64,000 nucleotides of DNA, taken from contig OX578142.1 in NCBI GenBank assembly GCA_951213105.1, positions 123,953,731 through 124,017,730 on the forward strand. Direction: 5' to 3'. Origin of the DNA: Amaurobius ferox (taxonomy: Eukaryota; Arthropoda; Arachnida; Araneae; Amaurobiidae). The position numbers were made by a program, and so were the translations under genes. Each line of letters begins with the position of its first letter. Positions within the stretch are counted from its first letter, which is position 1. The notes beneath the pieces were generated by a model, which had not been told where the DNA came from, ran no database searches, and saw only the letters and a list, made by a program, of their open reading frames with translations. Below, piece by piece: positions 1,891 through 62,690 of this stretch.

Positions 1891-2752
1891 GGATCAGGAT
1901 GCTTTGTTCAGATATGCAAATTCAGATTTACGAATTTGGCGGGATATCACTAACTTGGCAACATTTCTTAAACGTTGCGAAATTGTCGGAAATGTCGCCA
2001 AATTGAAGAAAATGTCGCTAAATTGATAAAAACGACGCTAAATCAATGAATTTAATTTTGTTTTGTTAGAAGAGAGTACTAAAGTCATGTTTCGGTAGCA
2101 TTTGTCTGTCAGTCCAACCGTCCTTATTAATACATTTGGCGAATTTTTAAAATGTCGCTAAATTCATCAAAATGTTTATAAATCTCTAAAAATATCTTGA
2201 AGTTGATACAATTGAGCTAAATAAATGAAATTAATTGTATTTTGCTAGGAGATAATATTATGAAAATGTTTCGTCAATTTGTCGCCAAGTGGGACTGTCA
2301 GTTCTATAGTCCCATTTGGAGATACATTTGGCGATTTTTAAAATGCCGCTAAATTGGCAAAAATATAGCCAAATTGATTAAATGACGCTAAGTTTATTAA
2401 AATGACACCGAATCGATGAAATTCCAATATTATGCACAATTAAGTACGATTTTCTAGATAATCGCTATCGTTTTGTGAGAATTAAAAAATATTTTTTCTA
2501 AATTTATTTACAAACTGAACTAGTATTCTTTATTCTTCACATCTGCCTGTAAAGATAATTTTGTATATCCAGCCCAGATATTCTTATACATTTTTTAGAA
2601 GAATTAAATTACATATTTTAATAGAATATTTTGAATAACATTTAAGTTGAATATTTTGAAGTCATTTGGAATACTATAGGAATTTACACATAATTGTGAA
2701 TGGCAAGTTTCTTTATATTATATGATCCGTATAAAGAATGGTATACTGCTAA
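1891..2752 (+). repeat. Family D repeat, copy 1 (minisatellite-like body plus 3' unit)
   Basis: The body is built from roughly 20-bp degenerate steps of the type AAATTGATAAAAATGTCGCC, arranged in larger units of about 200 bp. Each larger unit contains a GTCTGTCAGTCC-like stretch followed by ACATTTGGCGA. The 3' part (about 2450-2752) ends GGTATACTGCTA and aligns with 17480-17792 and, inverted, with about 30466-30670. Short open frames across it are incidental. Confidence 0.75.
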
Positions 2753-4689: not shown

Positions 4690-5016
4690 AAATGATTACG
4701 TCTGTCCGTCCCTGTAACGCTTGCCGAGAGATTTGGCGGGCTTTTTTTTAATGTTGCGAAATTGATGAAAATTTTGTTGAATCGCTAAAAATGTTCCCAA
4801 ATTGATAAAAATATCACCAAATTGATAAAAATGATGTCAAATTAATGAAATTACTTTTGTTTTGAATGGGGATAGTATTGTAATGATGTTTCAGTAGTTT
4901 TTAACTGTCAGTCCATCCTACGTGACAACAAATTTGGCGACCTTTAAAAATGTGGCCAAATTGCTCAAATATCCCCAAATCGAGAAAACTGTTGTCAACT
5001 TGATAAAAATGTCACC
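4690..5016 (+). repeat. Family D repeat, left half interrupted by the palindrome
   Basis: Shows the same AAATTGATAAAAATG steps and CTGTCAGTCC block as copy 1. It stops abruptly at the palindrome edge and the family resumes on the other side at 17174. The last stretch (4919-5016) is repeated in direct orientation at 17174-17291. Confidence 0.75.
4919..5016 (+). repeat. Direct repeat flanking the palindrome, left copy
   Basis: Runs from TACGTGACAACAAATTTGG to GATAAAAATGTCACC and abuts the GGGG of the palindrome end. The right-hand copy at 17174-17291 is the same apart from one additional 20-bp repeat step. It reads as a long target-site duplication, with one step lost here or gained on the right. 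Confidence 0.8.
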
Positions 5017-5114
5017 GGGGAGGTGGCTCAGGAGGAGAGGCCCTCTTTGGGAGGGAATTTCCCTCTTTGGAGTGGATCCTCTTTGGGAGGATGCCTCTCT
5101 TGAGCCACCTCCCC
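5017..5114 (+). repeat. Terminal hairpin of left arm
   Basis: GGGGAGGTGGCTCA (5017-5030) pairs perfectly with TGAGCCACCTCCCC (5101-5114). Inside it GGAGAGGC can pair with GCCTCTCT, and a smaller hairpin GAGGGAA/TTCCCTC (5051-5065) sits within the loop. A stem with small arms in its loop resembles the T- or Y-shaped ends of hairpin-ended replicons. That resemblance is structural inference only. Confidence 0.7.
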
Positions 5115-5290
5115 TCTTTGGAGTGTCTTCCCTCTTTTGAGAGGAAGCTCCTCTCAGAGGGTCTTGAGACCCCCAGGAGGGAGGATGCCCCCCTCCCCTC
5201 TTTTGGAAGTTTAGTGAGGTGGTGCAGCACCGGATGCCTCTCTTGGGAGGATGCCTCTTTCCTAGTATTGCGAAAGATGTCAAGAGGGCA
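5115..5290 (+). repeat. GC-rich CCTCTTT/GGGAGG tandem motifs
   Basis: Repeated CTCTTTGGGAGG-like and CCTCTCTTGGGAGG-like steps, each weakly self-complementary. The base composition is far above the surrounding AT-rich DNA. Frames through it on both strands are low-complexity and not considered coding. Confidence 0.75.
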
Positions 5291-5621
5291 ATTGCGAAGT
5301 CTTTCACGGAGGCATGATGACTCATACGGAGTGAGTTTCACTCTTGAGAGGGAATGTCACAATCGCTGACTGACCCTTGACCTGAGGAAGTGGTTTCAAG
5401 GGATGTCGCAATCGATGACTGAGCATCACACAATCTGGAAATGACGTGTCGCGCCTTGGAGCTCCTTAGCACACGTCCTCCCTCTCTGCTGGTCAGCGAC
5501 AGACTGAAAGATCTTATCAGCGTGAAGTAGTTAAAGCGCCCTCTGGCGAATTTTGATGAAGTGCTGCCATCTATCGGCATTTTTTTTTTTTTTTTTTCCA
5601 AAAGAAATTAATGTTTCACTT

Positions 5622-5697
5622 GTCAGGAGCTGGATTCGATCTTGGGCCCAACTGATTAGAAGTCGCGCGTCTTACCGCCGTGCCAAAGCACCCGTGC
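5622..5697 (-). repeat. tRNA-like (SINE head) sequence, left arm
   Basis: On minus it reads GCTTTGGCACGGCGGTAAGA (A-box-like), then TTCTAATCAG, then GATCGAATCC (B-box-like). The anticodon stem does not pair, so it is not a functional tRNA. An adjoining T-tract (5581-5597) would be the A-tail of a short SINE on this strand. The mirrored copy reads GACACAGCGG where this reads GGCACGGCGG. Confidence 0.6.
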
Positions 5698-5844
5698 TTT
5701 ATAGGCAGTTAACTTCGAAGTGTACCTTATCAGTGGAAGTTAGATTATTTTTCAAAGTTCATTCGAATAGCGATGCAAGGGTGCGTTTTAAAACAGAATG
5801 TTACGGACTGAATATAAATCTGTGTATTATAACATTATGATTTT

Positions 5845-6600
5845 TTAAAAACAAATGTATACACAAACTTTAAAAACACGAATGTAATAATTAGCTAAAA
5901 TTGTATTCAGTGGATTTTTTTTTTTAAAAATAAATCAATACGATTTTTATAATAATAACGAAATGATTTCGAATGTTTAAAAACAAATTGATTACGGATT
6001 TCCAATGAACACACAAATTGTGTTCAGTGGACACACAAATTGTGTTCAATGAATACGATTCGACCATTTTAAGTGTTGTGTATCTAAAAACAAATGTATA
6101 CACAAACTTTAAAAACACGAATGTAATAATTAGCTAAAATTGTATTCAGTGGATTTTTTTTAAAAATAAATCAATACGATTTTTATAATAATAACGAAAT
6201 GATTTCGAATGTTTAAAAACAAATTGATTACGGATGAACACACAAATTGTGTTCAATGAATACGATTCGACCATTTTAAGTGTTGTGTATCTAAAAACAA
6301 ATGTATACACAAACTTTAAAAACACGAATGTAATAATTAGCTAAAATTGTATTCAGTGGATTTTTTTTTTTTTTTTTTTTTTTAAATAAATCTAACTATC
6401 AATATAATTTTTTTTAAAAATGATTTGAATACACCCAAGTATAGTTACGCATTTTCAAAATGGTGTTAAGTGAATAGCATTCGACCATTCTGAGTGTTGT
6501 GTATCTAAAAACAAATGTATACACAAACTTTAAAAACACGAATGTAATAATTAGATAAAATTGTGTTCAGTGGACATGAAACTTGTGTTTTGTGAACAGG
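5845..6600 (+). repeat. Tandem unit, four copies, left arm
   Basis: ACAAATGTATACACAAACTT starts at 5851, 6090, 6297 and 6511, each followed by AACACGAATGTAATAATTAG and a poly(T) run. The spacings are 239, 207 and 214. Open frames here simply follow the repeat. Confidence 0.85.
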
Positions 6601-9241
6601 ATTCAACCATTCTAAGTGTGTGTGTGTGTGTGATTTTTGAAAAATAAATCTAAAAGTATATAAAAATAATAATAATGAAAATTAGAACTCACAGAACGAC
6701 CTCTTCACTACCCGCTAGTCAAACTTCAAATGAGTGAGACACTCTCATTACGCTATTAAAAATTAGATCTTATCATCACCAGTATGAGGTGTTGCCACCT
6801 ATTTTTTCTAATAATATATTTTAATAGTTGGATACTTCAAGGGTCTGATTTGGTACACGTAATCTGAAATACATCATTTTAATGATATTACGCATTGAAT
6901 ATGATTCGGCCATTTTTAAAATGGTGGATGTAATTGAAATATCGAAGTTTAGAATTTAACAAACTAACGAATTTTCACCCCCAAAAATTTTAGCATTCAG
7001 TTTAAATAAAACCCAATGAATATGATATCACCATTTTAACATCGTAATTTTACTACCATTATAGAACTTAGAAGTGAGTGTACATTATTTTTTTCAGGAC
7101 ACCAACACATTTTAAAATCTATTGAATAGGAATAGACCATTTTGCACATACATGTACCTAGATTTCAACACCCGGTATTAAAACCTGCTAAACATGAAAC
7201 GAGTAAGTATTGTGTGAGATTTTATCACACTAACTTTCAAACTTTTTAAATTTTTAAAAATGTCCGAAATAGTTGTATTTCATCGGTAGACATAAATTGT
7301 ATGGAACACATTTTTATGAAAAAAATATCTGTTTCGACAGCTTTTAAAAATAGATTTCTACAGTTGTACACTACGGTTCTAGAATTTTCTAGAATTTTCT
7401 AAATACGAATCGACTGTTTGAACTACCAATGGTGGTTTTACCGATGCAAATATTTACAGGACAAATATTTCAATGAAACCGAACTTAGTTGAAGCTTCTA
7501 AGTTTGAATATTTAGAATCATTTCATATAATTTTTATATTCACATTGAAAATAGTTAACAAAATTGGAACTCACGGAGCGACAACTTACTGTCCACACTC
7601 CAAATGAGTGATACACTCTTATTACATTATTAAAAATTAGATCTTATCTATAATGATGTCATTATGTTGCCATATTGCCACCACACAATTATTCTTTCCA
7701 AATTATGCATTTTTTCTTTTTTCTTTTTAATAACTTGCTACTGTCTTATGCTATCCATTTTTTTTTTCATATAAGCAGATATTCCACATACCTTCTAAAT
7801 GTTAAGTTGTAATTTAAAAAAAAAAAAAAAAAAAGCATTAGAGGTGTATTTTACGTCTGAATTCGTCCAAGTGGAAATCCGACAATTGCAAATGCATGAT
7901 TGCATCCTCACATTTCAATAGACACCACTAAAATGTGTGGATCTTATTTTGAAAAAGCTGCTCTCAGAAAGAATATGTATATGAATACATATTTTCCATA
8001 AATATACCCCCTCCCCCCCCCCCCCTCAATACACACAACATGCAGGCCAAAGACTCACCCAAAATACATTCCAAATCGGCTCTATAGCTTATCGCGCTTA
8101 TCAGTGTAACAGATAGTAACCCAAAGTTCATGTTCGCAAAGCGAGTTAATTGCAATGTTATTGTTTTAAGCAGTTCCCATATTTAAATGAAAAATTTATC
8201 AAATTATACAATACATACAAGAGCTGGAAGATCATAGCATTTCAATATTATAGAATACTCACAATGTTTTTTTTTTCCCCATTTAAAATTATCAAATTTT
8301 AATGCAATTTGACAAAAATTGCACAATACTTAGTGTATGACTATCAAATAAGAGCTAGGTTTTATTGTTACAACAACGTTTAAGATCATTAAACGAATAT
8401 ATATATATATATTTTTTTAAAGAAGAATAGTATATAACTTACTGTTTTTAAGGATAGGTGATTGTTAACATTGAATTTAAATGAAAGAGTGACCCTCTGA
8501 GACAAGTACAGTACATTGCAATAACATTAAAAAATATGAAAGATATGCAATTAACACCTTAAAAGAAACATGTAATGAGTTTTGATATCTTAATAGGAGA
8601 CATTATTGACATGCACATAGAAATGTCACAATTTTGTGACTGTAGGTGCTCCATAAGACCCCTCTGCTCTTAATGAATGATCCCATTTGAATGTACATAT
8701 TTAACAGCATACAGAAAATGACAGGACTACAACAAAATTTTACACCTATTACAGAATAACTCCCAACTTCGTAGATTTTTAAGAAACTACAGTAGAATTT
8801 TCACCGATTCTTAGAGATTGAAACACAGCATTGTTTATGAATCTTCATACTTTAGAGAATGGAACATAACTTACCATTTATTTTGAATGAATTCAGAATT
8901 TTGACATTGATTATAAATTTATGATTTAAACTCTGTAAAGTGTAAATATCCTTTGTTATGAAACTCACACTGTAGACATTTGATATGATTCGAATAAATC
9001 TATTTTTAATTTTTTATATTTTATTTTAAAAAGTGAGATTAGTAAACTTGTTACACTTGAATGTATAGATACATAACTCATAACCATATAACATTTCTTA
9101 AATGGAACATGCTTAAAAAAAAAAAAATTAGCTAATGAGTATAAATAAGAAATTCAATTTGAAAGATAAAAACCATTTAATGAATCTATTATTCATGAAA
9201 TACACATTAACCATTATCAGTTGTACATTTAAACAAATAAG
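6601..9241. other. Left arm, non-coding stretch
   Basis: Contains a direct duplication of about 120 bp (6675-6800 and 7560-7690), both copies carrying ATTAAAAATTAGATCTTATC (6755 and 7629), and short poly(A), poly(C) and (TA)n tracts. No other gene was found. A possible poly(A) signal for the minus-strand gene (AATAAA on minus) lies at 9020-9025. Confidence 0.6.
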
Positions 9242-10357
9242 TTAAAATGATTTCCTTATTGCACATTCATAGTCCTCTGATTTGAATGACTCGAAAAAAT
9301 TTCTATCATAACAGTAAAAGACTTCTTCACCACGCAACAAAACTTTCTTAGCAATGTTATTAATGTCAAGATTTAGAAGCACTTGTTCAGACACTCTGTC
9401 ATACATTTGTAATGGAGTGCTGTAAAGACATTCATGGTAACTTAAATCTTCAACTTGAGCAACACAGCCGACACATTTGAAAAGTTTTCTTACATGACAC
9501 ATGATGTTGTCATGAATACAAGAGATTAATTGTTCGAATGCAAAATTTTTGTCACAAATAAGTGATGGTAGAAAGGTTATAGTGTTCTTTATTTTTAATA
9601 TTTGAGCAGGAAGCCACTCTATAAATATACTTTCTCGAAGATGTATACTAATGTTGTTAACACTATTCTGTAAACATGCTATTTGATTTTTATCTAAGGT
9701 AATATGACACTGTGTTAGACAAAATTTTGAATCATATAATTGAATTATTTTCTGCAAATGCAATTTTCCGTTGTCATTGAAACAGAACAACTCATTGCGA
9801 CTGACGAAAGAGGTATCTGCATATAGAATATTGAACGACCACAATTTTTGAGAAAATTCACTCCACGTAGCCGGTGACAGTGTAACACCTTCACGCGTAG
9901 GCTGTAATTCATTTCGATCGTTAGAGAGATATTTCCATATATACACTTTTAACTTCCCATGACGAAGTTTTAAATATACATACACATTAGATCCTAAATG
10001 CCAACGACGGAGTGCATCTTGCATAAAATCTGAAGAAGTAGATTCACTCGAAATTGATTCTGCAGTGGAAGATAACACTCCGCTATGTGTTAGAGCACAA
10101 GAAAGTAGATCTTGAGTTGAGTTTTCAACCTCGGTGAGAACTTGTGAATTGACAACGGTAGATGTTTCTGCTGGGGTTTTGGAAGACATAAGATAGGTCT
10201 CTAACCAATCCTCAGCAAATTTTTGTGAGGGCGAATTAATCACATCTGAGACAATGTCCACAGATTTTGTTTCTTCTAGGGTAGGAACAGTCAACTCCGC
10301 ACTATTTACACTAGAAATTATTTGCTCGAGTGATGGCATACTTTGAATTTTAGGCAT
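9242..10357 (-). CDS. PC4/p15-domain protein, left copy
   Basis: Intact 371-codon frame from ATG (10355-10357) to TAA. The frame stays open 12 codons further upstream but only to a GTG, so the ATG is preferred; an upstream intron cannot be excluded. Residues about 119-176 match the PC4/Sub1 C-terminal fold: VYVYLK, GKLKVYIWKY, PTREGVTLSP and a Trp at 165 (the PC4 hallmark of K/R-x-G-I-x-L-x-P followed by W). Residues about 184-236 look like a second, weaker PC4 repeat (GKLHLQKIIQLY, then HITLDKNQIACLQ). The C-terminal part has C295-x2-C298-x9-H308-x-C310, a possible zinc site. The first 110 residues are Ser/Thr-rich and probably disordered. PC4 proteins bind ssDNA and melted DNA and act in transcription and repair; the role here is inferred. 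It differs from its twin by Ile rather than Val at residue 102. Confidence 0.85.
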   Translation of the reverse strand: MPKIQSMPSLEQIISSVNSAELTVPTLEETKSVDIVSDVINSPSQKFAEDWLETYLMSSKTPAETSTVVNSQVLTEVENSTQDLLSCALTHSGVLSSTAESISSESTSSDFMQDALRRWHLGSNVYVYLKLRHGKLKVYIWKYLSNDRNELQPTREGVTLSPATWSEFSQKLWSFNILYADTSFVSRNELFCFNDNGKLHLQKIIQLYDSKFCLTQCHITLDKNQIACLQNSVNNISIHLRESIFIEWLPAQILKIKNTITFLPSLICDKNFAFEQLISCIHDNIMCHVRKLFKCVGCVAQVEDLSYHECLYSTPLQMYDRVSEQVLLNLDINNIAKKVLLRGEEVFYCYDRNFFESFKSEDYECAIRKSF

Positions 10358-11054
10358 TCTTTTTAGATAGTAACATCCAACTACGACATTCACAGTATAA
10401 GATTTATTTTTAAAACACTAACATCTTAAAACATTATAATTTTGTCGCAGCTATGAACGAACCAAACCTATCCACACAACGCCCAAAGTTGAAATGACTT
10501 ATCAAACAACTTCATAAGTATAATCACATAACCTAAATCGAGTGTCGTGTGCAAACAGATCACATAAGATATGAAGTGATTAGAACTTATAATTTTTAAT
10601 GAATCGTACAACATTAGATTGTGGTAAATACAATTGTTATCTACATGAGAAAATTTCTATATTATTTCATTCAGCTTCGAAATCATAGAGTGAAAATATG
10701 TACCAAACTTACTTAAAGTTCCTAATTTTAAATCACATTAACATTATATACATAGAAAAATTTTATATATATTTTTATAACTTTAGGTGATATGTATCAC
10801 GCGGAATATACAAGAATAGCTACCAAAAACACGAAAATAACTAACAGTATGAGGCCTTCACAAGTCGACATCCAAACTAGAAATGAACGATAAACACACT
10901 AATTACAACAATTAGATGAGTGCTTATCAGTTCTTATCTTATCTAAGATTTCACATAAAATGACGTCATCACTCCAAAGTTCACAAGATGACGTCATTGG
11001 TCCAAGGTTCGCAAGATAGTCGTTTAACCTTTTAAAATTAAGAAGTAATTAAAA
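10358..11054 (-). promoter_or_regulatory. Upstream region of left PC4-like gene with two CRE sites
   Basis: Perfect TGACGTCA octamers (CREB/ATF-type) lie at 10961-10968 and 10989-10996, the second beside CCAAT-type sequence. A TATA-like stretch (mirror of ATAAAAATATATATAAAA on the right) lies about 410 bases before the ATG. The start of transcription cannot be fixed from sequence. Confidence 0.5.
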
Positions 11055-11105
11055 TTTTTATAATTGTGAATAAGTGATTTAAAATTAAGAAGTAATTACT
11101 ACCGA
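11055..11105. other. Spacer at the palindrome axis
   Basis: 51 bases between the arms. It contains TTTAAAATTAAGAAGTAATT, a direct repeat of the innermost left-arm sequence (11032-11051). This suggests the centre was altered by a small slippage or repair event. A short asymmetric centre makes a long palindrome more stable. Confidence 0.8.
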
Positions 11106-11802
11106 TTTTAATTACTTCTTAATTTTAAAAGGTTAAACGACTATCTTGCGAACCTTGGACCAATGACGTCATCTTGTGAACTTTGGAGTGATGACGTCAT
11201 TTTATGTGAAATCTTAGATAAGATAAGAACTGATAAGCTCTCATCTAATTGTTGTAATTAGTGTGTTTATCGTTCATTTCTAGTTTGGATGTCGACTTGT
11301 GAAGGCCTCATACTGTTAGTTATTTTCGTGTTTTTGGTAGCTATTCTTGTATATTCCGCGTGATACATATCACCTAAAGTTATAAAAATATATATAAAAT
11401 TTTTCTAAGTATATAATGTTAATGTGATTTAAAATTAGGAACTTTAAGTAAGTTTGGTACATATTTTCACTCTATGATTTCGAAGCTGAATGAAATAATA
11501 TAGAAATTTTCTCATGTAGATAACAATTGTATTTACCACAATCTAATGTTGTACGATTCATTAAAAATTATAAGTTCTAATCACTTCATATCTTATGTGA
11601 TCTGTTTGCACACGACACTCGATTTAGGTTATGTGATTATACTTATGAAGTTGTTTGATAAGTCATTTCAACTTTGGGCGTTGTGTGGATAGGTTTGGTT
11701 CGTTCATAGCTGCGACAAAATTATAATGTTTTAAGATGTTAGTGTTTTAAAAATAAATCTTATACTGTGAATGTCGTAGTTGGATGTTACTATCTAAAAA
11801 GA
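11106..11802 (+). promoter_or_regulatory. Upstream region of right PC4-like gene with two CRE sites
   Basis: TGACGTCA at 11164-11171 and 11192-11199, the exact mirror of the left pair, so four CREs lie within 240 bp around the axis. A TATA-like ATAAAAATATATATAAAA is at about 11382. Together with the left arm this forms a symmetric bidirectional promoter. Confidence 0.5.
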
Positions 11803-12918
11803 ATGCCTAAAATTCAAAGTATGCCATCACTCGAGCAAATAATTTCTAGTGTAAATAGTGCGGAGTTGACTGTTCCTACCCTAGAAGAAACAAAATCTGT
11901 GGACATTGTCTCAGATGTGATTAATTCGCCCTCACAAAAATTTGCTGAGGATTGGTTAGAGACCTATCTTATGTCTTCCAAAACCCCAGCAGAAACATCT
12001 ACCGTTGTCAATTCACAAGTTCTCACCGAGGTTGAAAACTCAACTCAAGATCTACTTTCTTGTGCTCTAACACATAGCGGAGTGTTATCTTCCACTGCAG
12101 AATCAGTTTCGAGTGAATCTACTTCTTCAGATTTTATGCAAGATGCACTCCGTCGTTGGCATTTAGGATCTAATGTGTATGTATATTTAAAACTTCGTCA
12201 TGGGAAGTTAAAAGTGTATATATGGAAATATCTCTCTAACGATCGAAATGAATTACAGCCTACGCGTGAAGGTGTTACACTGTCACCGGCTACGTGGAGT
12301 GAATTTTCTCAAAAATTGTGGTCGTTCAATATTCTATATGCAGATACCTCTTTCGTCAGTCGCAATGAGTTGTTCTGTTTCAATGACAACGGAAAATTGC
12401 ATTTGCAGAAAATAATTCAATTATATGATTCAAAATTTTGTCTAACACAGTGTCATATTACCTTAGATAAAAATCAAATAGCATGTTTACAGAATAGTGT
12501 TAACAACATTAGTATACATCTTCGAGAAAGTATATTTATAGAGTGGCTTCCTGCTCAAATATTAAAAATAAAGAACACTATAACCTTTCTACCATCACTT
12601 ATTTGTGACAAAAATTTTGCATTCGAACAATTAATCTCTTGTATTCATGACAACATCATGTGTCATGTAAGAAAACTTTTCAAATGTGTCGGCTGTGTTG
12701 CTCAAGTTGAAGATTTAAGTTACCATGAATGTCTTTACAGCACTCCATTACAAATGTATGACAGAGTGTCTGAACAAGTGCTTCTAAATCTTGACATTAA
12801 TAACATTGCTAAGAAAGTTTTGTTGCGTGGTGAAGAAGTCTTTTACTGTTATGATAGAAATTTTTTCGAGTCATTCAAATCAGAGGACTATGAATGTGCA
12901 ATAAGGAAATCATTTTAA
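11803..12918 (+). CDS. PC4/p15-domain protein, right copy
   Basis: Intact 371-codon frame, ATG at 11803 and TAA at 12916-12918; the frame is open back to a GTG at 11767 without another ATG. Identical to the minus-strand twin except Val for Ile at residue 102. It carries the PC4-type domain (about 119-176), a probable second degenerate PC4 repeat (about 184-236), a C-x2-C-x9-H-x-C cluster (295-310), and a Ser/Thr-rich N-terminus. At 371 residues it is much longer than a cellular PC4 of roughly 110-130 residues, and it has no visible introns. That fits a mobile-element or viral-type gene rather than the host coactivator. Both copies being open argues that the protein was under selection recently or that the arms are kept alike by gene conversion. 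No transposase or nuclease motif is evident in it. Confidence 0.86.
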   Translation: MPKIQSMPSLEQIISSVNSAELTVPTLEETKSVDIVSDVINSPSQKFAEDWLETYLMSSKTPAETSTVVNSQVLTEVENSTQDLLSCALTHSGVLSSTAESVSSESTSSDFMQDALRRWHLGSNVYVYLKLRHGKLKVYIWKYLSNDRNELQPTREGVTLSPATWSEFSQKLWSFNILYADTSFVSRNELFCFNDNGKLHLQKIIQLYDSKFCLTQCHITLDKNQIACLQNSVNNISIHLRESIFIEWLPAQILKIKNTITFLPSLICDKNFAFEQLISCIHDNIMCHVRKLFKCVGCVAQVEDLSYHECLYSTPLQMYDRVSEQVLLNLDINNIAKKVLLRGEEVFYCYDRNFFESFKSEDYECAIRKSF

Positions 12919-15559
12919 CTTATTTGTTTAAATGTACAACTGATAATGGTTAATGTATATTTCATGAATAATAGATTCATTAAATGGTTTTTATCTTTCA
13001 AATTGAATTTCTTATTTATACTCATTAGCTAATTTTTTTTTTTTTAAGCATGTTCCATTTAAGAAATGTTATATGGTTATGAGTTATGTATCTATACATT
13101 CAAGTGTAACAAGTTTACTAATCTCACTTTTTAAAATAAAATATAAAAAATTAAAAATAGATTTATTCGAATCATATCAAATGTCTACAGTGTGAGTTTC
13201 ATAACAAAGGATATTTACACTTTACAGAGTTTAAATCATAAATTTATAATCAATGTCAAAATTCTGAATTCATTCAAAATAAATGGTAAGTTATGTTCCA
13301 TTCTCTAAAGTATGAAGATTCATAAACAATGCTGTGTTTCAATCTCTAAGAATCGGTGAAAATTCTACTGTAGTTTCTTAAAAATCTACGAAGTTGGGAG
13401 TTATTCTGTAATAGGTGTAAAATTTTGTTGTAGTCCTGTCATTTTCTGTATATTGTTAAATATGTACATTCAAATGGGATCATTCATTAAGAGCAGAGGG
13501 GTCTTATGGAGCACCTACAGTCACAAAATTGTGACATTTCTATGTGCATGTCAATAATGTCTCCTATTAAGATATCAAAACTCATTACATGTTTCTTTTA
13601 AGGTGTTAATTGCATATCTTTCATATTTTTTAATGTTATTGCAATGTACTGTACTTGTCTCAGAGGGTCACTCTTTCATTTAAATTCAATGTTAACAATC
13701 ACCTATCCTTAAAAACAGTAAGTTATATACTATTCTTCTTTAAAAAAAAAATATATATATATATTCGTTTAATGATCTTAAACGTTGTTGTAACAATAAA
13801 ACCTAGCTCTTATTTGATAGTCATACACTAAGTATTGTGCAATTTTTGTCAAATTGCATTAAAATTTGATAATTTTAAATGGGGAAAAAAAAACATTCGT
13901 GAGTATTCTATAATATTGAAATGCTATGATCTTCCAGCTCTTGTATGTATTGTATAATTTGATAAATTTTTCATTTAAATATGGGAACTGCTTAAAACAA
14001 TAACATTGCAATTAACTCGCTTTGCGAACATGAACTTTTGGGTTACTATCTGTTACACTGATAAGCGCGATAAGCTATAGAGCCGATTTGGAATGTATTT
14101 TGGGTGAGTCTTTGGCCTGCATGTTGTGTGTATTGAGGGGGGGGGGGAGGGGGTATATTTATGGAAAATATGTATTCATATACATATTCTTTCTGAGAGC
14201 AGCTTTTTCAAAATAAGATCCACACATTTTAGTGGTGTCTATTGAAATGTGAGGATGCAATCATGCATTTGCAATTGTCGGATTTCCACTTGGACGAATT
14301 CAGACGTAAAATACACCTCTAATGCTTTTTTTTTTTTTTTTTAAATTACAACTTAACATTTAGAAGGTATGTGGAATATCTGCTTATATGAAAAAAAAAA
14401 TGGATAGCATAAGACAGTAGCAAGTTATTAAAAAGAAAAAAGAAAAAATGCATAATTTGGAAAGAATAATTGTGTGGTGGCAATATGGCAACATAATGAC
14501 ATCATTATAGATAAGATCTAATTTTTAATAATGTAATAAGAGTGTATCACTCATTTGGAGTGTGGACAGTAAGTTGTCGCTCCGTGAGTTCCAATTTTGT
14601 TAACTATTTTCAATGTGAATATAAAAATTATATGAAATGATTCTAAATATTCAAACTTAGAAGCTTCAACTAAGTTCGGTTTCATTGAAATATTTGTCCT
14701 GTAAATATTTGCATCGGTAAAACCACCATTGGTAGTTCAAACAGTCGATTCGTATTTAGAAAATTCTAGAAAATTCTAGAACCGTAGTGTACAACTGTAG
14801 AAATCTATTTTTAAAAGCTGTCGAAACAGATATTTTTTTCATAAAAATGTGTTCCATACAATTTATGTCTACCGATGAAATACAACTATTTCGGACATTT
14901 TTAAAAATTTAAAAAGTTTGAAAGTTAGTGTGATAAAATCTCACACAATACTTACTCGTTTCATGTTTAGCAGGTTTTAATACCGGGTGTTGAAATCTAG
15001 GTACATGTATGTGCAAAATGGTCTATTCCTATTCAATAGATTTTAAAATGTGTTGGTGTCCTGAAAAAAATAATGTACACTCACTTCTAAGTTCTATAAT
15101 GGTAGTAAAATTACGATGTTAAAATGGTGATATCATATTCATTGGGTTTTATTTAAACTGAATGCTAAAATTTTTGGGGGTGAAAATTCGTTAGTTTGTT
15201 AAATTCTAAACTTCGATATTTCAATTACATCCACCATTTTAAAAAATGGCCGAATCATATTCAATGCGTAATATCATTAAAATGATGTATTTCAGATTAC
15301 GTGTACCAAATCAGACCCTTGAAGTATCCAACTATTAAAATATATTATTAGAAAAAATAGGTGGCAACACCTCATACTGGTGATGATAAGATCTAATTTT
15401 TAATAGCGTAATGAGAGTGTCTCACTCATTTGAAGTTTGACTAGCGGGTAGTGAAGAGGTCGTTCTGTGAGTTCAAATTTTCATTATTATTATTTTTATA
15501 TACTTTTAGATTTATTTTTCAAAAATCACACACACACACACACTTAGAATGGTTGAATC
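12919..15559. other. Right arm, non-coding stretch
   Basis: Mirror of 6601-9241. AATAAA at 13135-13140 could serve as the poly(A) signal about 220 bases after the stop. It holds the duplicated ATTAGATCTTATC-bearing block and short homopolymers. No other gene was seen. Confidence 0.6.
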
Positions 15560-15771
15560 CTGTTCACAAAACACAAGTTTCATGTCCACTGAACACAATT
15601 TTAGCTAATTATTACATTCGTGTTTTTAAAGTTTGTGTATACATTTGTTTTTAGATACACAACACTCAGAATGGTCGAATGCTATTCACTTAACACCATT
15701 TTGAAAATGCGTAACTATACTTGGGTGTATTCAAATCATTTTTAAAAAAAATTATATTGATAGTTAGATTT

Positions 15772-15805
<34 letters not shown>

Positions 15806-16318
15806 ACTGAATACAATTTTAGCTAATTATTACATTCGTGTTTTTAAAGTTTGTGTATACATTTGTTTTTAGATACACAACACTTAAAATGGTCGAATCG
15901 TATTCATTGAACACAATTTGTGTGTTCATCCGTAATCAATTTGTTTTTAAACATTCGAAATCATTTCGTTATTATTATAAAAATCGTATTGATTTATTTT
16001 TAAAAAAAATCCACTGAATACAATTTTAGCTAATTATTACATTCGTGTTTTTAAAGTTTGTGTATACATTTGTTTTTAGATACACAACACTTAAAATGGT
16101 CGAATCGTATTCATTGAACACAATTTGTGTGTCCACTGAACACAATTTGTGTGTTCATTGGAAATCCGTAATCAATTTGTTTTTAAACATTCGAAATCAT
16201 TTCGTTATTATTATAAAAATCGTATTGATTTATTTAAAAAAAAAAAATCCACTGAATACAATTTTAGCTAATTATTACATTCGTGTTTTTAAAGTTTGTG
16301 TATACATTTGTTTTTAAA
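15560..16318 (-). repeat. Tandem unit, four copies, right arm
   Basis: Mirror of the left-arm array. Each copy reads AAGTTTGTGTATACATTTGT on plus and is separated by poly(A) runs. The number of units is the same in both arms, although the homopolymer lengths differ. Confidence 0.85.
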
Positions 16319-16463
16319 AAATCATAATGTTATAATACACAGATTTATATTCAGTCCGTAACATTCTGTTTTAAAACGCACCCTTGCATCGCTATTCGAA
16401 TGAACTTTGAAAAATAATCTAACTTCCACTGATAAGGTACACTTCGAAGTTAACTGCCTATAA

Positions 16464-16578
16464 AGCACGGGTGCTTTGACACAGCGGTAAGACGCGCGAC
16501 TTCTAATCAGTTGGGCCCAAGATCGAATCCAGCTCCTGACAAGTGAAACATTAATTTCTTTTGGAAAAAAAAAAAAAT
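16464..16578 (+). repeat. tRNA-like (SINE head) with A-tail, right arm
   Basis: A-box-like TTTGACACAGCGGTAAGA, then B-box-like GATCGAATCC at 16521-16530, ending in 13 A's (16566-16578). It has the pol III promoter arrangement of a short SINE. It is not a tRNA gene because the stems do not pair well. Confidence 0.6.
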
Positions 16579-16869
16579 GCCGATAGATGGCAGCACTTCA
16601 TCAAAATTCGCCAGAGGGCGCTTTAACTACTTCACGCTGATAAGATCTTTCAGTCTGTCGCTGACCAGCAGAGAGGGAGGACGTGTGCTAAGGAGCTCCA
16701 AGGCGCGACACGTCATTTCCAGATTGTGTGATGCTCAGTCATCGATTGCGACATCCCTTGAAACCACTTCCTCAGGTCAAGGGTCAGTCAGCGATTGTGA
16801 CATTCCCTCTCAAGAGTGAAACTCACTCCGTATGAGTCATCATGCCTCCGTGAAAGACTTCGCAATTGC

Positions 16870-17042
16870 CCTCTTGACATCTTTCGCAATACTAGGAAAG
16901 AGGCATCCTCCCAAGAGAGGCATCCGGTGCTGCACCACCTCACTAAACTTCCAAAAGAGGGGAGGGGGGCATCCTCCCTCCTGGGGGTCTCAAGGCCCTC
17001 TGAGAGGAGCTTCCTCTCAAAAGAGGGAAGACACTCCAAAGA
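16870..17042 (-). repeat. GC-rich CCTCTTT/GGGAGG tandem motifs, right end
   Basis: Mirror of 5115-5290, with repeated CATCCTCCCAAAGAGG-like steps. Frames here are low-complexity and not taken as genes. Confidence 0.75.
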
Positions 17043-17140
17043 GGGGAGGTGGCTCAAGAGAGGCATCCTCCCAAAGAGGATCCACTCCAAAGAGGGAAAT
17101 TCCCTCCCAAAGAGGGCCTCTCCTCCTGAGCCACCTCCCC
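17043..17140 (+). repeat. Terminal hairpin of right arm
   Basis: GGGGAGGTGGCTCA (17043-17056) pairs with TGAGCCACCTCCCC (17127-17140), with the same small inner hairpins as the left end. It is followed by about 33 bases (17141-17173, beginning GATCCGCCGCAG) that have no counterpart on the left. These could be filler DNA or an untrimmed element end. Confidence 0.7.
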
Positions 17141-17173
17141 GATCCGCCGCAGAACGCCCCTTTTATAACTACT

Positions 17174-17291
17174 TACGTGACAACAAATTTGGCGACCTTT
17201 AAAAATGTGGCCAAATTGCTCAAATATCGCCAAATTAACGAAAATATCCCCAAATCGAGAAAACTGTTGTCAACTTGATAAAAATGTCACC
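17174..17291 (+). repeat. Direct repeat flanking the palindrome, right copy
   Basis: Matches 4919-5016, with one extra 20-bp step (GCCAAATTAACGAAAATATC). Sequence continues past it into ordinary family D DNA. Confidence 0.8.
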
Positions 17292-17792
17292 AAATCAATG
17301 AAATTAATTGCGTATAGAAAGATGATAGTATTGTAATGCTGTTTCGGTAGCGTTTGTCTCTTAGTCGAACTGTCCCACTTTCTAACAAATTTGGCGACTT
17401 TTCATAATGCCGTCAAATTAATGAAAATGCGACCGAATTGAATTGATGAAAATTACTCCTAATTTATAAAAATTCAGTATTTTGCAAAATTAAGTTCAAT
17501 TTACTTAATAATCCCTGTCACTTTGTGGGAATTAAATAATAGTTTTTGTAAATGTGTTTAGAAACGAGACCAGGATGGGGTTTTTCCTTCAGATCTTCCT
17601 GTGAAGATAATTTTGTATAACGAGAACAGATACTCTTATACATCTTTTCAGGAGAATTAAATTAAATATTTTAATAATATGTTTAGAATAACAATGTCAT
17701 TTAAAGTATTATAGGAATATGCACTGAAGTTTTAATTTCTTTATATTATATATTCCGTGCGAAGAACTGGTATACTGCTAGTATATTAACAA
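17174..17792 (+). repeat. Family D repeat, right half
   Basis: Continues the D copy broken by the palindrome. It contains another AACAAATTTGGCGACTTTTC unit at about 17385, then the D 3' part ending GGTATACTGCTA, as at about 2740-2751. Confidence 0.75.
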
Positions 17793-29513: not shown

Positions 29514-30465
29514 CTGGTATTTGTTTATGTAGGTGATTAAACTCACTGAGAATGTATGATCTGTCTCTCAAGACGTAAATGGTCTTAAAGTAAATAAAGT
29601 AAATGGTCTTAATATTTAATTGTAGAGAATGATCAGTCCATTTTCTATGTTATCGATCATCAAGCGTAGTATCAGATTTGTTATTGTTTCCATTGAGCAG
29701 CTGTGCTATACCAGTAAGCCGCGGTTAGCAATGTAGGTCACCTCCTTATTTTCATACAAGCAAAAATAATAAAAAGTGTACCGTTCTTGTACATTTTCAC
29801 CAAATTTTGCTTTTGAAATTAAGGCATGTTCAAATTTTACGCATTTTCTCTACACACAGCATTAACTTGAACACTGTGAAGAATGTCTAAAACACTATTA
29901 TTTTCGTTGACGTTTTTCCACATCTCTCCCTTCTCTTTGTCTGTTTCTACTACTATTTCAGAAATGTCCACAAAGTACATTGAAAAGGAACACGTTAATT
30001 GTAATCCCCGTGTCTGTATGAAATCTATATAGTGGTAGCCAGTCATGCATACTCATTCGACTTACCGCTAGCAAAATAAATTTGATATGCAGTGTCACGA
30101 ACCCCATAAGAAACGTATAGAGGTTTAGAATGCCACTCTGCATTTTAACGTGTATGGAATGATATAAATTATTTTTTCTTGCTTAAACTTTTAATAAGTC
30201 CGTTCGTTCATGCCTGCCAACGGGTTAAAATAATAAATGCCAAAAGATTAAAACCATTCATCTGGATGTGAAATTGAATATTTACATAGAATATATAGAC
30301 AGGGCCTTAATAAAAAAAGCTTCCATAAAGTTTCATATATATTCATTTTTTATTATTAGACGTGAGAAATAATGCAGCAAATTCAAGTATTGGAATTCCC
30401 AAAATTGTAATGCAACAATTATTCTAGAAATATATATATTACTATCAGCATACTCGTTCTTTGTG
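29512..30465. other. Unrecognised DNA
   Basis: Two overlapping short minus frames (29837-30046, 29958-30143) have no known motif. Nothing else was seen. Confidence 0.45.
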
Positions 30466-30670
30466 CGGAATGTATAAAAAACTTAAAATTCACAATTATG
30501 TGCAAATTCCTATAGTATTTTACATGACAATATTATTCATTCTATTAAAGTATTTAAATTAATGCTCCTGAAAAGAAGTTTAAGAATCTCTGTTATCTCT
30601 ATACAAAATCATCTTCACAGGCAGATCTAAAGAATAAAATATCCTAGTCCCGCTTGTAAACCAATTTAAA
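30466..30670 (-). repeat. Family D repeat, 3'-part fragment
   Basis: Inverted relative to 2450-2752: it shares AAATTCCTATAG, AAAATCATCTTCACAGGCAG and the spacing between them. The minisatellite body is absent. Confidence 0.6.
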
Positions 30671-31109
30671 ACAAACGTGAAATCGAATCAATATATGTCA
30701 AACTGAAAGTACTAAAATTGTATTGGAAGATATAACAGAACTACTTATATTCTTGTAGATTAGAAGGTATACTCGTACTACAATAAATGAGTTTGAAAAA
30801 TCTTTGCCAAAGTAAAACATATGATGTAATAAAATATCAATTATCCCCTCATTCTTAAAACTTGAGGGGATAACCAAAATAAAACAAATAACGCCTTAAA
30901 TAGAAAATATCAATAATTCCAGTAATATTTAACATGCAGGCCGTAATTAATATAATTCAGTCAAAGATGCAATTTCGATCACATTTATTTTATATACATT
31001 TCTTTATTATTTAAATTGGAAAAGATTTAATAAAAATCGTCTGCCGCATAAACACATTGGATTTAAATCCGTTGTTAAGGGACATGATATCATTTTTTCA
31101 AATAAATTT
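30671..31109. other. Unrecognised AT-rich DNA
   Basis: No gene or repeat assigned. A weak inverted pair (TTATCCCCTCA at about 30841 and TGAGGGGATAA at about 30863) can form a small hairpin. Confidence 0.45.
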
Positions 31110-51759: not shown

Positions 51760-52940
51760 ATAGCTAATTAAAAACTGGATAAGAATCATTTAGATGAATT
51801 AAAGAACAAATTCGCTGTCACTTATATGGACAAAATACCTTCAAACTATGCATTCACCTGTAAAAATATTATGTAGATAATTTAAGAAAAAGTTACAAAA
51901 ATGACAATATGTATAAACAAAATTGTTTATCTCAAAAAGCCAATGAAAACAGGATAATAGCATTATATAAGCGAATCGGTATTGAAATTGATATTGTTAA
52001 ATTCCCTTACTTGGTGTTGATACCAAAAATGCACAAGTCACCAATCAAATTTAGACCTGTAACAGTGGATTTTAGAACATACTTAACTAAGGTAAATGCA
52101 ATCCTACTGAATATTTTAAGGCCTACTATGTTGACTATCAAATCCAATGGAACAGTAATGGTATCCAACAGTTATGAAGTTATCGACAAATTGAGCAAGA
52201 TACCTGATCGTCTTTATCTAAAAAGTTATGATTTTAGAGATTTGTTTAATAATATAAATTTAAAGGACCTTTATGATATTATGATTGAAACCTTTGAAAC
52301 TTACGACTTGCATTTAAAGATCAACATCAATAAGTTCAAGAATGTAATCAAATTCGTTCTGTATGAAAATATCCTTTATAACGGAATTTCCTTCTACCAA
52401 CAAGTACAAGGAATCCCCATGGGAGGTGGATGCTCATCCATGTTGGCCGACATATATTTAAATAAGTATGAAATTGGAACACACATTCTAAATGAAGTCC
52501 CGTTTTTCAGATTTCTAGACGATGTTCTGATCGGACATATAGAAAGTACATATCAATTCGATTTCAGTTTTTACCCGGTAAATTTAGAGCTAATCGAGAC
52601 AAAAAGGGAAGAAATGGTGGACTTTTTGGATATATGCATATATTACGATGAAAAGAACAAGATATGTTTTACAATGTATGATAAAAGGAAAACTTTTGAC
52701 ATTGACATCAACTACATAATTAACTGGAATACCAATTTGAGTATAGGAGTATTCCGCAACTTAATACTCAATCACCTGATAAAAGACTAAATACAACCCA
52801 ACGGGAACGCACATATTTGGGAATGGAATTTAGTTTGTGAGGCAGTAAAACAACAATATCCTAGGCGATTTCTAAGACATTATTATGAGGCATTTTACAA
52901 AAACTATAATAGCATCTTATATGCAAATTTCAACGAACTG
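51760..52940 (+). pseudogene. Reverse transcriptase (Penelope-like?), broken at both ends
   Basis: The central open frame 51909-52790 gives 293 residues with RT motifs in order: PYLVLIPKMHKSPIKFRPVT (33-52), motif A SYDFRDLFNNI with D108, motif B QGIPMGGGCSSMLAD (167-181), motif C FRFLDDV with D204-D205, and a motif D/E-like NLELIETKREEMVDFLDICI. All three catalytic aspartates are present; FLDD replaces the retroviral YxDD, as in Penelope, telomerase-like and related RTs. Upstream coding (DELKNKFAVTYMDKIPSNYA, from about 51795) is in another frame and breaks near 51870. Downstream the tail goes out of frame at about 52788, where a few bases are missing relative to the inverted left copy. No GIY-YIG nuclease is attached. 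It is not functional as it stands. Confidence 0.82.
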
Positions 52941-56351: not shown

Positions 56352-57182
56352 AGCAAATAAAAATACAAACCCCATCGACAAGCATGCGAATCCATTGCTT
56401 CTGTTACTGCAAGACTACATTGTTAAATGCTTATTGTATGTTGTCCGACAATAGATTGGAAAAAACAAGACTGTATTTGAACGAAATGGGACAGGAGATA
56501 TTTTCATGTATTATTTAATCACGAAATATTAGCAAAGTATACGAGAGGAAAAAGTTTAAAAAATCTAATGGAGCATACAATCACAGATTAATACAAGTTG
56601 ATAATACATACAATATTATGGTTTGCACTTAGAATATATTATTACAATTTAAAATATAAATCCAATTGAAGCATTCATAAAAAAATACAAAATTGTACTT
56701 TATATAACTGATAAATTCATGTAAAATTCTTACCATCAGGTCTGAAAACATTCGCTGCTCAAGAATGAACGACATGTTCAAATGAGTGGAGTTGAGTGCA
56801 TGATTGTAGTACGAGAAGATAAAACCATGGGGTTGACAACAGTTGAAGAAATGTGAGTTCGTAGTGCGTGCACGTGTTCACAATCACTCTTGATAGTGAA
56901 GGAACTTATACTACTGCTTACAAGTGCTTGAGGAAAACTGTACACAGTGTTCAGTATTTTTTTAAACATGTTGAAACTGAATACTAGCCAGACGTTTAAT
57001 TCATAACGTAAAGTTGAATATTTAATTTTTGATAACAGAACTGGGAAGAATATTGGCCACCTTATAGCTAACTGATAAATAAGGAGATAAAAGTATAAAA
57101 TTCCTTGGGAAAACCTCTTGCCGTTGAAGGCTAGAAACCGAATTCGTCTTGTTGAATTTATGCTCAAGTAATTCTATCGTTT
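56130..57182. other. AT-rich DNA with short (TA)n
   Basis: (TA)n at 56319-56345. The 129-codon minus frame (56778-57167) has no recognised domain. The region just upstream of the GIY-YIG relic may be decayed element sequence. Confidence 0.45.
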
Positions 57183-57596
57183 TATACATCGTTCAATATT
57201 CTTTCCGGTTTCAATTTTAGGTGTGTATTCAAACCACTTAACAAAATTAATTTCTCTTTTTTTAAAAATCATATCCCTGTCTTAAAGAGTTGGGGTGTTT
57301 ACCATATTCCTTGTGAATGTGATCCTGATTATGTTGGTCAAAGTAAAAGAGTTCTTAAATTTCGTATTCAGGAACACATGAGCCCTGCTTCTAAACAATA
57401 AGTTTTTTAAATGGCAATTGCTGAACATTCTTGGGGTTCTAATCATGATTTTATTTTTTCCAAAGCTGAGATCGTTTCTACTCTTAATTTTATTTTTGAA
57501 ATGTACTTACTTGAAAGTTTCTGCGTTGTTTCTTCTTTACAATTCCTTATTAATAATTGTCCCTTCTTCTCTTCTGCTTGGAAATCCCTGGTTTAA
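57183..57596 (+). pseudogene. GIY-YIG endonuclease relic of a Penelope-like element
   Basis: One frame reads from about 57183 to the stop at 57594-57596, interrupted by two in-frame stops at about 57400 and 57409. It shows FKNHIPVLKSWGVYHIPCEC (the GIY strand as GVY), DPDYVGQSKRVLKFRIQEH (YIG as YVG, then the R-x3-H region), AIAEHSWGSNHDFIF, and the typical tail LLESFCVVSSLQFLINN...FFSSAWKSLV. This is the C-terminal nuclease half of Penelope-type retroelements, which nicks target DNA for insertion. The RT half is not recognisable upstream. It is unlikely to be the missing part of the RT element at 52 kb, whose own C-terminus is seen to end without it. Confidence 0.8.
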
Positions 57597-61560: not shown

Positions 61561-61873
61561 CAATATTCTTTTATTCCCGGTTCCTTCTAAACAAAAAAAT
61601 TCCAAAGCAAAATTTACTTCCATAGGTAATTTCTAGAGATATATGTTCAGAATGTGGGAAGATGAAATTCTGGGGTGATTCTTTGCGGTGTCTGGGGATC
61701 TGGAAAATTTTCAGAACCTGAAAAATTTAGGGACGTTTTTCTAACTAGAAAAGTCTGAGACAAGTTGGGGAGATTTAAATTTGGAAAAACAGGGAAACTT
61801 AAAATATATAATTTTCAAAATTTTGGGCAGAAATATTACGCTATTGTAAATTTTCATTTGTAGTGCTTTCCAG

Positions 61874-62690
61874 AGTCCACTTCGATGATAAGAGCTTGCA
61901 ATTTCGTCCCAGTAACTCAACGGTAGAGCGTCGGCTGGCCAGTTCGGAGATCCGGGGTTCGATCCCTGATTGGGGCAGCAAGACTCTTTACAATGGCGCC
62001 CAAGCAAATCAACCCTGCAGTTTAGTACAGTGATATCGGAGGTCTGAAAGTGACCCCAGTACCACTAGTACGGATTTAGTGGACTCTGAAATATTGAGCG
62101 CCGATTTCAAACTGAGAGGATAATAACCACACAGGATACTAATCTGGGTAAAAATAGTAGTACCAGAAGGCTAGTCAGATTATCAGTAGCCCGCCAACCT
62201 AACATTAGAGTGTGGAGAATGCAGAGTTAACTTCGACGATAAGAGCTTGCAATTTCGTCCCAATACCTCAACGGTAGAGCGTCGGCTGACCAATTTGGAG
62301 ATCCAGGGTTCGATCCCCGATAGGGGCAGCAAGACTCTTTACAATGGCGCCCAAACAAATCAACACTGTAGTTTAGTGCAATGATATCGGAGGTCTGAAA
62401 GTGACCCCAGTACCACTAGTACGGATTTAGTGGACTCTGAAATATTGCGCGCCGATTTCAAATTGAGAGGATAATAACCACGCAGGATTCTAACCTGGGT
62501 AAAAATAGTAGTAACAGAAGGCTAGTCAGATTATCAGTAGCCCGCCAATCTAACATTAGTGGGTGGAGAATGCGGAGTCCACTTCGACGATAAGAGCTTG
62601 CAATTTCGTCCTAGTAGCTCAACTGTAGGCAATCGACTGGCCAGGGTTCAATTTCCTGTTGGAGCAGCAAGGTTTTTTACAGCTTGTTAG
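61874..62690 (+). repeat. 351-bp tandem array with tRNA-like heads (2.3 units)
   Basis: AGAGCTTGCAATTTCGTCC at 61891, 62242 and 62593, exactly 351 apart. Each unit starts with a tRNA-like sequence. The first two continue through shared blocks (CAAGACTCTTTACAATGGCG, GTGACCCCAGTACCACTAGT, GATTATCAGTAGCCCGCCAA); the third is cut off after about 95 bases. Units 1 and 2 are closely similar. It is probably a tRNA-derived SINE or satellite multiplied in tandem. Confidence 0.85.
61906..61976 (+). repeat. tRNA-like sequence in array unit 1
   Basis: 71 bases. GTCCCA pairs with TTGGGGC at the ends, D-arm ACTCAACGGTAGAGC (A box), T-arm CCGGGGTTCGATCCCTG (B box). The anticodon stem is poor and the loop lacks the normal U33 (TGGCCAG), so it is a pol III promoter-bearing relic rather than a working tRNA. 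Copies at about 62257-62327 and 62608-62660 are more decayed. Confidence 0.6.

What the first reader, a model, noticed from the sequence alone, without database searches (positions are those of the whole stretch)
5016..17141. A 12.1-kb near-perfect palindrome carrying two divergent copies of one PC4-domain gene
Seen directly: two arms of 6.04 kb with a net length difference of 3 bases, a 51-bp spacer, and both genes intact with one amino-acid difference. Long palindromes are unstable, so this one is young, maintained by gene conversion, or was produced by a replication mechanism such as a head-to-head dimer. The arm carries no known transposase, Rep/SF3 helicase, integrase or polymerase. A foldback-like element whose only product is a PC4-type ssDNA-binding protein is not something I can match to a described family.
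Basis: partly seen in the sequence, partly recalled or inferred. Interest (0 to 1): 0.92.

Follow-up and report, generated by a model that had tools for sequence, protein, structure and literature searches.

The report
Palindromic Maverick-like elements carrying paired PC4 genes
The 12-kb palindrome is a real, recently active mobile element present in hundreds of copies in this large animal-type genome; its copies seem to be born with two identical mirror-image arms, which suggests that it is copied through a folded-back single strand.

Summary
The palindrome is real (arms 6,040 and 6,037 bp, 49-bp spacer), but not a lone oddity. The window lies in a 3.56-Gb genome. The 13 copies that I read all have two arms, two of them partly truncated. 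An end pattern occurs 571+593 times, reversed control 0+0; of 100 listed ends, 86 form 43 pairs, median 12.2 kb.

All 11 copies with both ends have exact 6-bp target-site duplications; 10 of 11 end 5'-AGTAGT...ACTACT-3'. That is the Maverick/Polinton signature (PMC8097293). The genome also holds open Polinton polymerase and integrase frames. The only gene found in the arm is a PC4-domain gene, open in 25 of 25 arms.

Arms of one copy share family variants (398 alike, 7 unlike); 69 of their 75 differences are private. So the arms were near-identical at insertion.

My reading: a helper-dependent Maverick-type element multiplied as a self-complementary molecule. The helper is unidentified: 0 of 5 Polinton genes checked lie near the 12-bp end sequence. 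The window copy lost about 32 bp at its left end beside a 117-bp flank duplication.

The parts
5016..11055 (+). left arm of the palindrome (outer end to axis)
11056..11104 (.). 49-bp spacer at the axis; other copies have the same spacer in either orientation, or (read by eye) a longer near-perfect palindrome with a 10-nt loop
11105..17141 (-). right arm of the palindrome
17142..17173 (+). true right terminus, 32 bp (reads 5'-AGTAGTTATAAAAGGGG... inward on the - strand); its counterpart is missing on the left
17174..17179 (+). target site duplication TACGTG, right copy
4919..4924 (+). target site duplication TACGTG, left copy
4919..5015 (+). left copy of a 117-bp direct repeat of the right flank 17174-17290, identical but for one missing 20-bp unit; aberrant left junction
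9242..10357 (-). PC4-domain gene, left arm (371 aa from ATG at 10357)
11803..12918 (+). PC4-domain gene, right arm (371 aa)
10960..11017 (.). two 28-bp direct repeats, each with TGACGTCA (CRE-like; name recalled); mirrored at 11143-11200; possible shared divergent promoter region (inference)
   Evidence: 4 of the window's 5 TGACGTCA
5017..5620 (.). GC-rich terminal block with strong nested hairpins; differs much between copies
5846..6574 (.). subterminal tandem repeats of about 207-240 bp

Best explanation
A family of about 12-kb, fully palindromic mobile elements of Maverick/Polinton type that depend on a helper. Shown: dispersed copies, 5'-AGTAG(T) ends, exact 6-bp target-site duplications, one intact PC4-domain gene per arm and no enzyme gene found, and two arms that were near-identical when each copy read was inserted. 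Inferred: an integrase supplied in trans by a Maverick/Polinton joins the AGT-AGT ends to the target. The element multiplies as a self-complementary strand, for example the strand displaced during protein-primed replication, which snaps back at the short axis loop and copies itself. New insertions then have two arms made from one template. The PC4-type protein, encoded outward from the axis, coats the single-stranded intermediate. The window copy integrated normally at its right end; its left end lost about 32 bp and was joined aberrantly with a 117-bp flank duplication.
For: 6-bp duplications in 11 of 11 copies with both ends, and AGTAGT ends in 10 of 11. The same pair of features is described for vertebrate Mavericks (PMC8097293: passages, section 7). 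End pattern 571+593 hits, reversed control 0+0. Open Polinton PolB frames (76 of 4,221 candidates scored, some with stops) and integrase frames (126 of 12,030 candidates scored, one listed row with a stop). Integrase with rve and chromodomain beside PolB in L033. Arms of a copy group together on a tree: 12 changes for 13 groups, the least possible, reached by 0 of 200 shuffles. Arms alike at 398 copy-by-site cells, unlike at 7; 69 of 75 arm differences private; 0 of 66 copy pairs violate the identical-at-birth inequality. Gene open in 25 of 25 arms that hold it. Coding sites vary less than the rest: 21/1113 against 123/3228, p 0.002, or 0.026 without the most variable bin.
Against: No helper element with the same ends was found: the 5 Polinton genes on the listed first 125 Mb of C1 have no AGTAGTTATAAA within 170 kb, and 0 of the 8 PolB matches that could be checked on C1 and C2 lie inside a listed element. 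The 12-mer AGTAGTTATAAA alone is no commoner than its reversed control (1573+1613 against 1864+1890). Polinton ends in this genome were not read. The element itself shows no PolB, integrase or capsid gene. The direct selection test within the gene is not significant (N 14, S 8, p 0.11). The single-strand step is inferred; gene conversion in the donor could also make arms alike. On the tree, 2 of 12 two-armed copies (C19 and the window) are not one clade, the window's arms in 0% of bootstrap trees, and only C18, C2 and C20b have starred support. 6 of 75 arm differences involve alleles seen elsewhere.
Confidence: 0.63

Rival explanations
1. An ordinary foldback transposon of the Mutator or P kind whose terminal repeats grew until they met; moved by cut and paste, with arms kept alike by gene conversion inside the chromosome.
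For: Long inverted arms with subterminal tandem repeats, as in Galileo, whose longest copy has TIRs of 4.2 and 4.7 kb and no transposase segment (PMC4168063, passages).
Against: Target duplications are 6 bp in 11 of 11 copies, against 7-8 bp in Galileo and 8-10 bp in Tetris (passages). Intact genes lie inside the arms. Arm differences fit divergence since birth without further conversion.
Confidence: 0.15
2. Same mobile element, but the arms become alike by gene conversion within integrated donor copies rather than through a folded single-strand intermediate.
For: Long palindromes are known to convert (recalled). 6 of 75 arm differences involve alleles also seen in other copies.
Against: The 66 copy pairs tested all fit arms identical at insertion (0 violations), and 69 of 75 differences are private mutations, so conversion after insertion is rare in the copies read. 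This does not exclude conversion in donors.
Confidence: 0.25
3. Head-to-head dimer of a parvovirus-like genome.
For: Arm of about 6 kb with GC-rich terminal hairpins.
Against: No Rep, helicase or capsid gene found in the arm; axis 40-mer at 97 places in the genome; 6-bp duplications.
Confidence: 0.03
4. Assembly or amplification artefact.
For: Single-molecule foldback artefacts make perfect inverted joins (recalled).
Against: 12 more palindromes at other places with their own flanks, 11 with exact duplications; arms of the window differ by substitutions outside homopolymers.
Confidence: 0.01

Closest known systems
Maverick/Polinton elements (vertebrate Mavericks, PMC8097293)
   Same: 6-bp target-site duplications; 5'-AGTAGT...ACTACT-3' ends; size near the lower end of the range (12.7-24.6 kb described; 11.4-12.7 kb here in 10 of the 11 copies with both ends, 9.1 kb in one)
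   Different: no PolB, integrase, ATPase or capsid gene found; the terminal repeats are the whole element, not 46-1,447 bp; carries two PC4-domain genes
Foldback transposons (Galileo, Tetris)
   Same: very long inverted arms with subterminal tandem repeats; long two-arm copies without transposase (passages)
   Different: 7-10 bp duplications there; here 6 bp, an intact gene in each arm and a recurrent axis
Palindromic defective genomes of adenovirus and other protein-primed invertrons
   Same: palindrome with the same replication end on both sides, explained by fold-back of a displaced strand (recalled; the passages of PMC1864894 seen support only strand displacement and panhandle-shaped intermediates of invertron plasmids)
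   Different: those are by-products (recalled); this is a family inherited in the genome that has multiplied to hundreds of copies and keeps its own gene
PC4/SUB1 ssDNA-binding coactivators
   Same: PC4 region at residues 131-184
   Different: 371-aa protein with a long C-terminal part and a C-x2-C...H-x-C motif conserved in the two relatives; only two relatives found in 5.8 billion proteins

Membership tests
Maverick/Polinton | 6-bp target-site duplication | tested here: met
   11 of 11 copies with both ends
Maverick/Polinton | conserved end motif such as 5'-(AGT)2//(ACT)2-3' | tested here: met
   AGTAGT in 10 of 11, AGTAGA in 1; motif from PMC8097293
Maverick/Polinton | protein-primed DNA polymerase B and retroviral-like integrase in the element | tested here: not met
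   no such ORF found in the arm (spliced genes not excluded); so not an autonomous member
Maverick/Polinton | capsid, ATPase and protease genes | tested here: not met
   only the PC4 gene found in the arm
Maverick/Polinton (non-autonomous derivative) | ends shared with an autonomous element of the same genome | tested here: inconclusive
Foldback transposons | long inverted arms with subterminal repeats | tested here: met
Foldback transposons | 7-10 bp duplications of the Mutator/P type | tested here: not met
   6 bp
Parvovirus dimer | Rep/NS1 and capsid genes | tested here: not met
PC4 family | PC4 domain above the Pfam cut-off | tested here: not met
   17.8 bits against 25, but matched to solved PC4 chains at E 6e-4

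The most novel reading that the evidence does not exclude
A separate class of self-complementary mobile genome: a palindromic satellite of Mavericks that replicates as a folded single strand, makes both arms anew in every cycle, and carries only its own ssDNA-binding protein. Through it the genome has gained hundreds of near-perfect 12-kb palindromes with working genes.
Probability: 0.4. Interest if true: 0.85.

Novelty: new variant of a known kind. Interest (0 to 1): 0.74.

Why it matters
Long palindromes are usually thought of as unstable rarities. Here one genome carries them by the hundred, as a mobile element that appears to remake both arms between insertions. That gives a natural record of arm divergence since birth, a test case for how Maverick-type elements replicate, and an example of a helper-dependent satellite that keeps a single ssDNA-binding-type gene.

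Tried and rejected
Considered and dropped: (a) a 117-bp target-site duplication, my own first reading of the direct repeat 4919-5015 / 17174-17290. The other copies showed 6-bp duplications and a missing left end here, so I read it as an aberrant junction. (b) Spacer inversion as a flip-flop of hairpin replication: insertion in either orientation explains it (54 against 43 places, p 0.31). (c) Head-to-head parvovirus dimer, host segmental palindrome, assembly artefact. (d) Structure prediction: mean pLDDT 38.9 with 3 sequences, too poor for a fold search; only the strand order in the PC4 region agrees. (e) No relatives confirmed in viral contigs or genome contigs, no match of the arm in phages, of an end 30-mer in viral contigs, of the window in Rfam, and PHROGs matches of the protein only at E 0.024 or worse. 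(f) Papers: searches found none; some searches were seen as listings (46 and 109 listed 12 of 19 and 12 of 114). Passages were read from PMC4168063, PMC4079207, PMC6431247 and PMC1864894, and passages and section 7 from PMC8097293; no paper was read whole. As far as titles and abstract starts show, none of the listed papers describes a palindromic Maverick or a PC4-bearing transposon. (g) The organism was not identified.

Full report
Observation. The inverted repeat 5016-17141 is present at 99.27% identity. Exact arms are 5016-11055 and 11105-17141 with a 49-bp spacer. The two genes are open and differ by one residue, I102V, counted from the conserved ATG. Both known relatives start at the same place. 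The PC4 domain is weak in Pfam (E 0.0024, below the cut-off) but is supported by solved PC4 chains (E about 6e-4). Only two relatives, 55% and 50% identical, were found among 5.8 billion proteins. Eight other ORFs of the arms gave nothing convincing; a gene split into short exons is not excluded.

It is a family. The whole-genome search answered after eight unanswered calls. The window is G000:C7:123953731-124017730 in a 3.56-Gb assembly. The arm matched at 39 places in 16 loci (19 of 3,728 candidates scored). I read 12 loci besides the window (10, one each); 3 could not be fetched. All 13 have both arms, but C11b lacks the inner part of its right arm, C7b its right end, and the window its leftmost 32 bp. 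The best inverted self-matches are 98.3-99.7% in the 11 copies (C8 and C2 are not in that call; the C11b block is only 1.8 kb). The outer few hundred bases match less well in some copies, for example 84% with gaps in C20a. The end pattern occurs 571+593 times against 0+0 for the reversed control. Of the 100 rows listed, 86 form 43 pairs with a median length of 12,185 bp (range 6.0-19.7 kb), and 14 are single. A 31-mer of the gene's 3' end occurs 116+117 times, control 0+0. Of the 100 rows listed, 90 form 45 divergent pairs. The axis 40-mer occurs at 97 places. Protein searches with three queries listed 107, 113 and 111 gene copies of 4,471, 4,009 and 4,109 candidates. Many stand in divergent pairs; by eye few rows are shared between lists. 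Stops were seen in 0, 2 and 4 of these rows. The lists show the best matches only, so this is biased toward open frames.

Ends. In 11 of 11 copies with both ends, the element begins AGTAG and is flanked by an identical 6-bp duplication, each with a different sequence. Ten of the 11 begin AGTAGT and one AGTAGA. PMC8097293 describes the same for vertebrate Mavericks: 6-bp duplications (passage) and, as the commonest motif, 5'-(AGT)2//(ACT)2-3' (section 7). The genome holds Polinton polymerase frames (85 matches from 76 of 4,221 candidates scored, several open over about 1,520 codons, others with stops). It also holds integrase frames (126 of 12,030 candidates scored, one listed row with a stop). 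One locus, L033, shows the integrase (rve plus chromodomain), a phospholipase-A2-like protein and PolB side by side. Against a simple link, AGTAGTTATAAA does not occur within 170 kb of any of 5 Polinton genes on the listed first 125 Mb of C1. Also, 0 of the 8 PolB matches that could be checked on C1 and C2 lie in a listed element; two more on C2 lie beyond the listed rows. The 12-mer alone is no commoner than its reversed control (1573+1613 against 1864+1890), so it is the longer end pattern that marks the family. The helper is therefore an inference.

The window copy. Its right end is 17173, followed by TACGTG. TACGTG also stands at 4919-4924. Between there and the palindrome lies a copy of the right flank (17174-17290, less one 20-bp unit), and the outer 32 bp of the left arm are missing. 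The joined flanks align in one piece with a related repeat at 1990-2751, scoring 381, against 132 and 261 for either side alone. I read this as normal joining of the right end and aberrant joining of the left.

How the arms stay alike. In 25 arms over about 4.3 kb (inner part, window 6700-11040) substitutions are 0-0.35% within copies and 0.13-1.01% between copies. Arms of the same copy sit together on the tree: 12 changes for 13 groups, the least possible, 0 of 200 shuffles as low. Copy by copy, 10 of 12 two-armed copies are one side of a branch, three of them with starred support (C18, C2, C20b); C19 and the window are not (the window in 0% of bootstrap trees). At sites that separate subfamilies, both arms agree in 398 cells and differ in 7. 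Of 75 differences between arms, 69 are private to one arm and 6 are not, and in 66 of 66 pairs the between-copy distance exceeds the mean of the two within-copy distances. So arms were near-identical at insertion and then drifted apart. New mutations in one arm must reach the other between one insertion and the next. A self-complementary single strand does this automatically; conversion in the donor is the rival. The axis fits a fold-back: read by eye, in the longest form (C18, C2) it is a near-perfect palindrome with a 10-nt loop.

The gene. The frame is full length in 25 of 25 arms that hold it; one has 6 extra residues, and the 26th arm (C11b, right) lacks the gene. Coding sites vary less than the rest (21/1113 against 123/3228, p 0.0018; p 0.026 without the most variable bin). 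The test within the gene points the same way but is not significant (14 non-synonymous, 8 synonymous, p 0.11). The gene points outward from the axis, where TGACGTCA occurs four times. I infer an ssDNA-binding role from the PC4 domain.

Verdict. A new variant of a known kind: it has Maverick-type ends and duplications but none of the Maverick enzymes was found in it, it is entirely palindromic, and it carries a PC4 gene in each arm. I found no such element in the paper searches named in Tried and rejected.

Noticed in passing
G000 genome-wide: PC4-domain frames of about 340 and 535 aa occur as dispersed multi-copy genes (150 of 1,914 candidates scored), some as divergent pairs such as C23:11173701(-)/11176544(+). 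Other PC4-bearing mobile families probably exist.
   Followed up: no
G000:C10:144943624-144984166: Three divergent gene pairs 10,049 bp apart, followed by two more copies: looks like a tandem array of elements.
   Followed up: no
L033:1-5901: Polinton with open integrase (rve + chromodomain) and PolB frames (PolB runs off the stretch) and a phospholipase-A2-like protein; 126 integrase copies scored genome-wide.
   Followed up: partly
window 51864-52787 and 57156-57398: Reverse transcriptase ORF (RVT_1, E 1.6e-8) and, about 4.4 kb on, an ORF that looks GIY-YIG-like by eye; possibly a Penelope-like element (label recalled), beside an inverted repeat 51056-51602/52735-53278.
   Followed up: no
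window 5580-5720: tRNA-like stretch followed by an A-run on the minus strand, inside the arm: perhaps a SINE carried by the element (by eye; ARAGORN and Rfam found nothing).
   Followed up: no
window 61871-62628: 351-bp tandem repeat with a stretch that looks tRNA-like by eye.
   Followed up: no
window 1956-2751, 4788-5015, 17174-17780, 30440-30676: Dispersed, internally repetitive host family with 20-bp sub-units that was the insertion target.
   Followed up: partly
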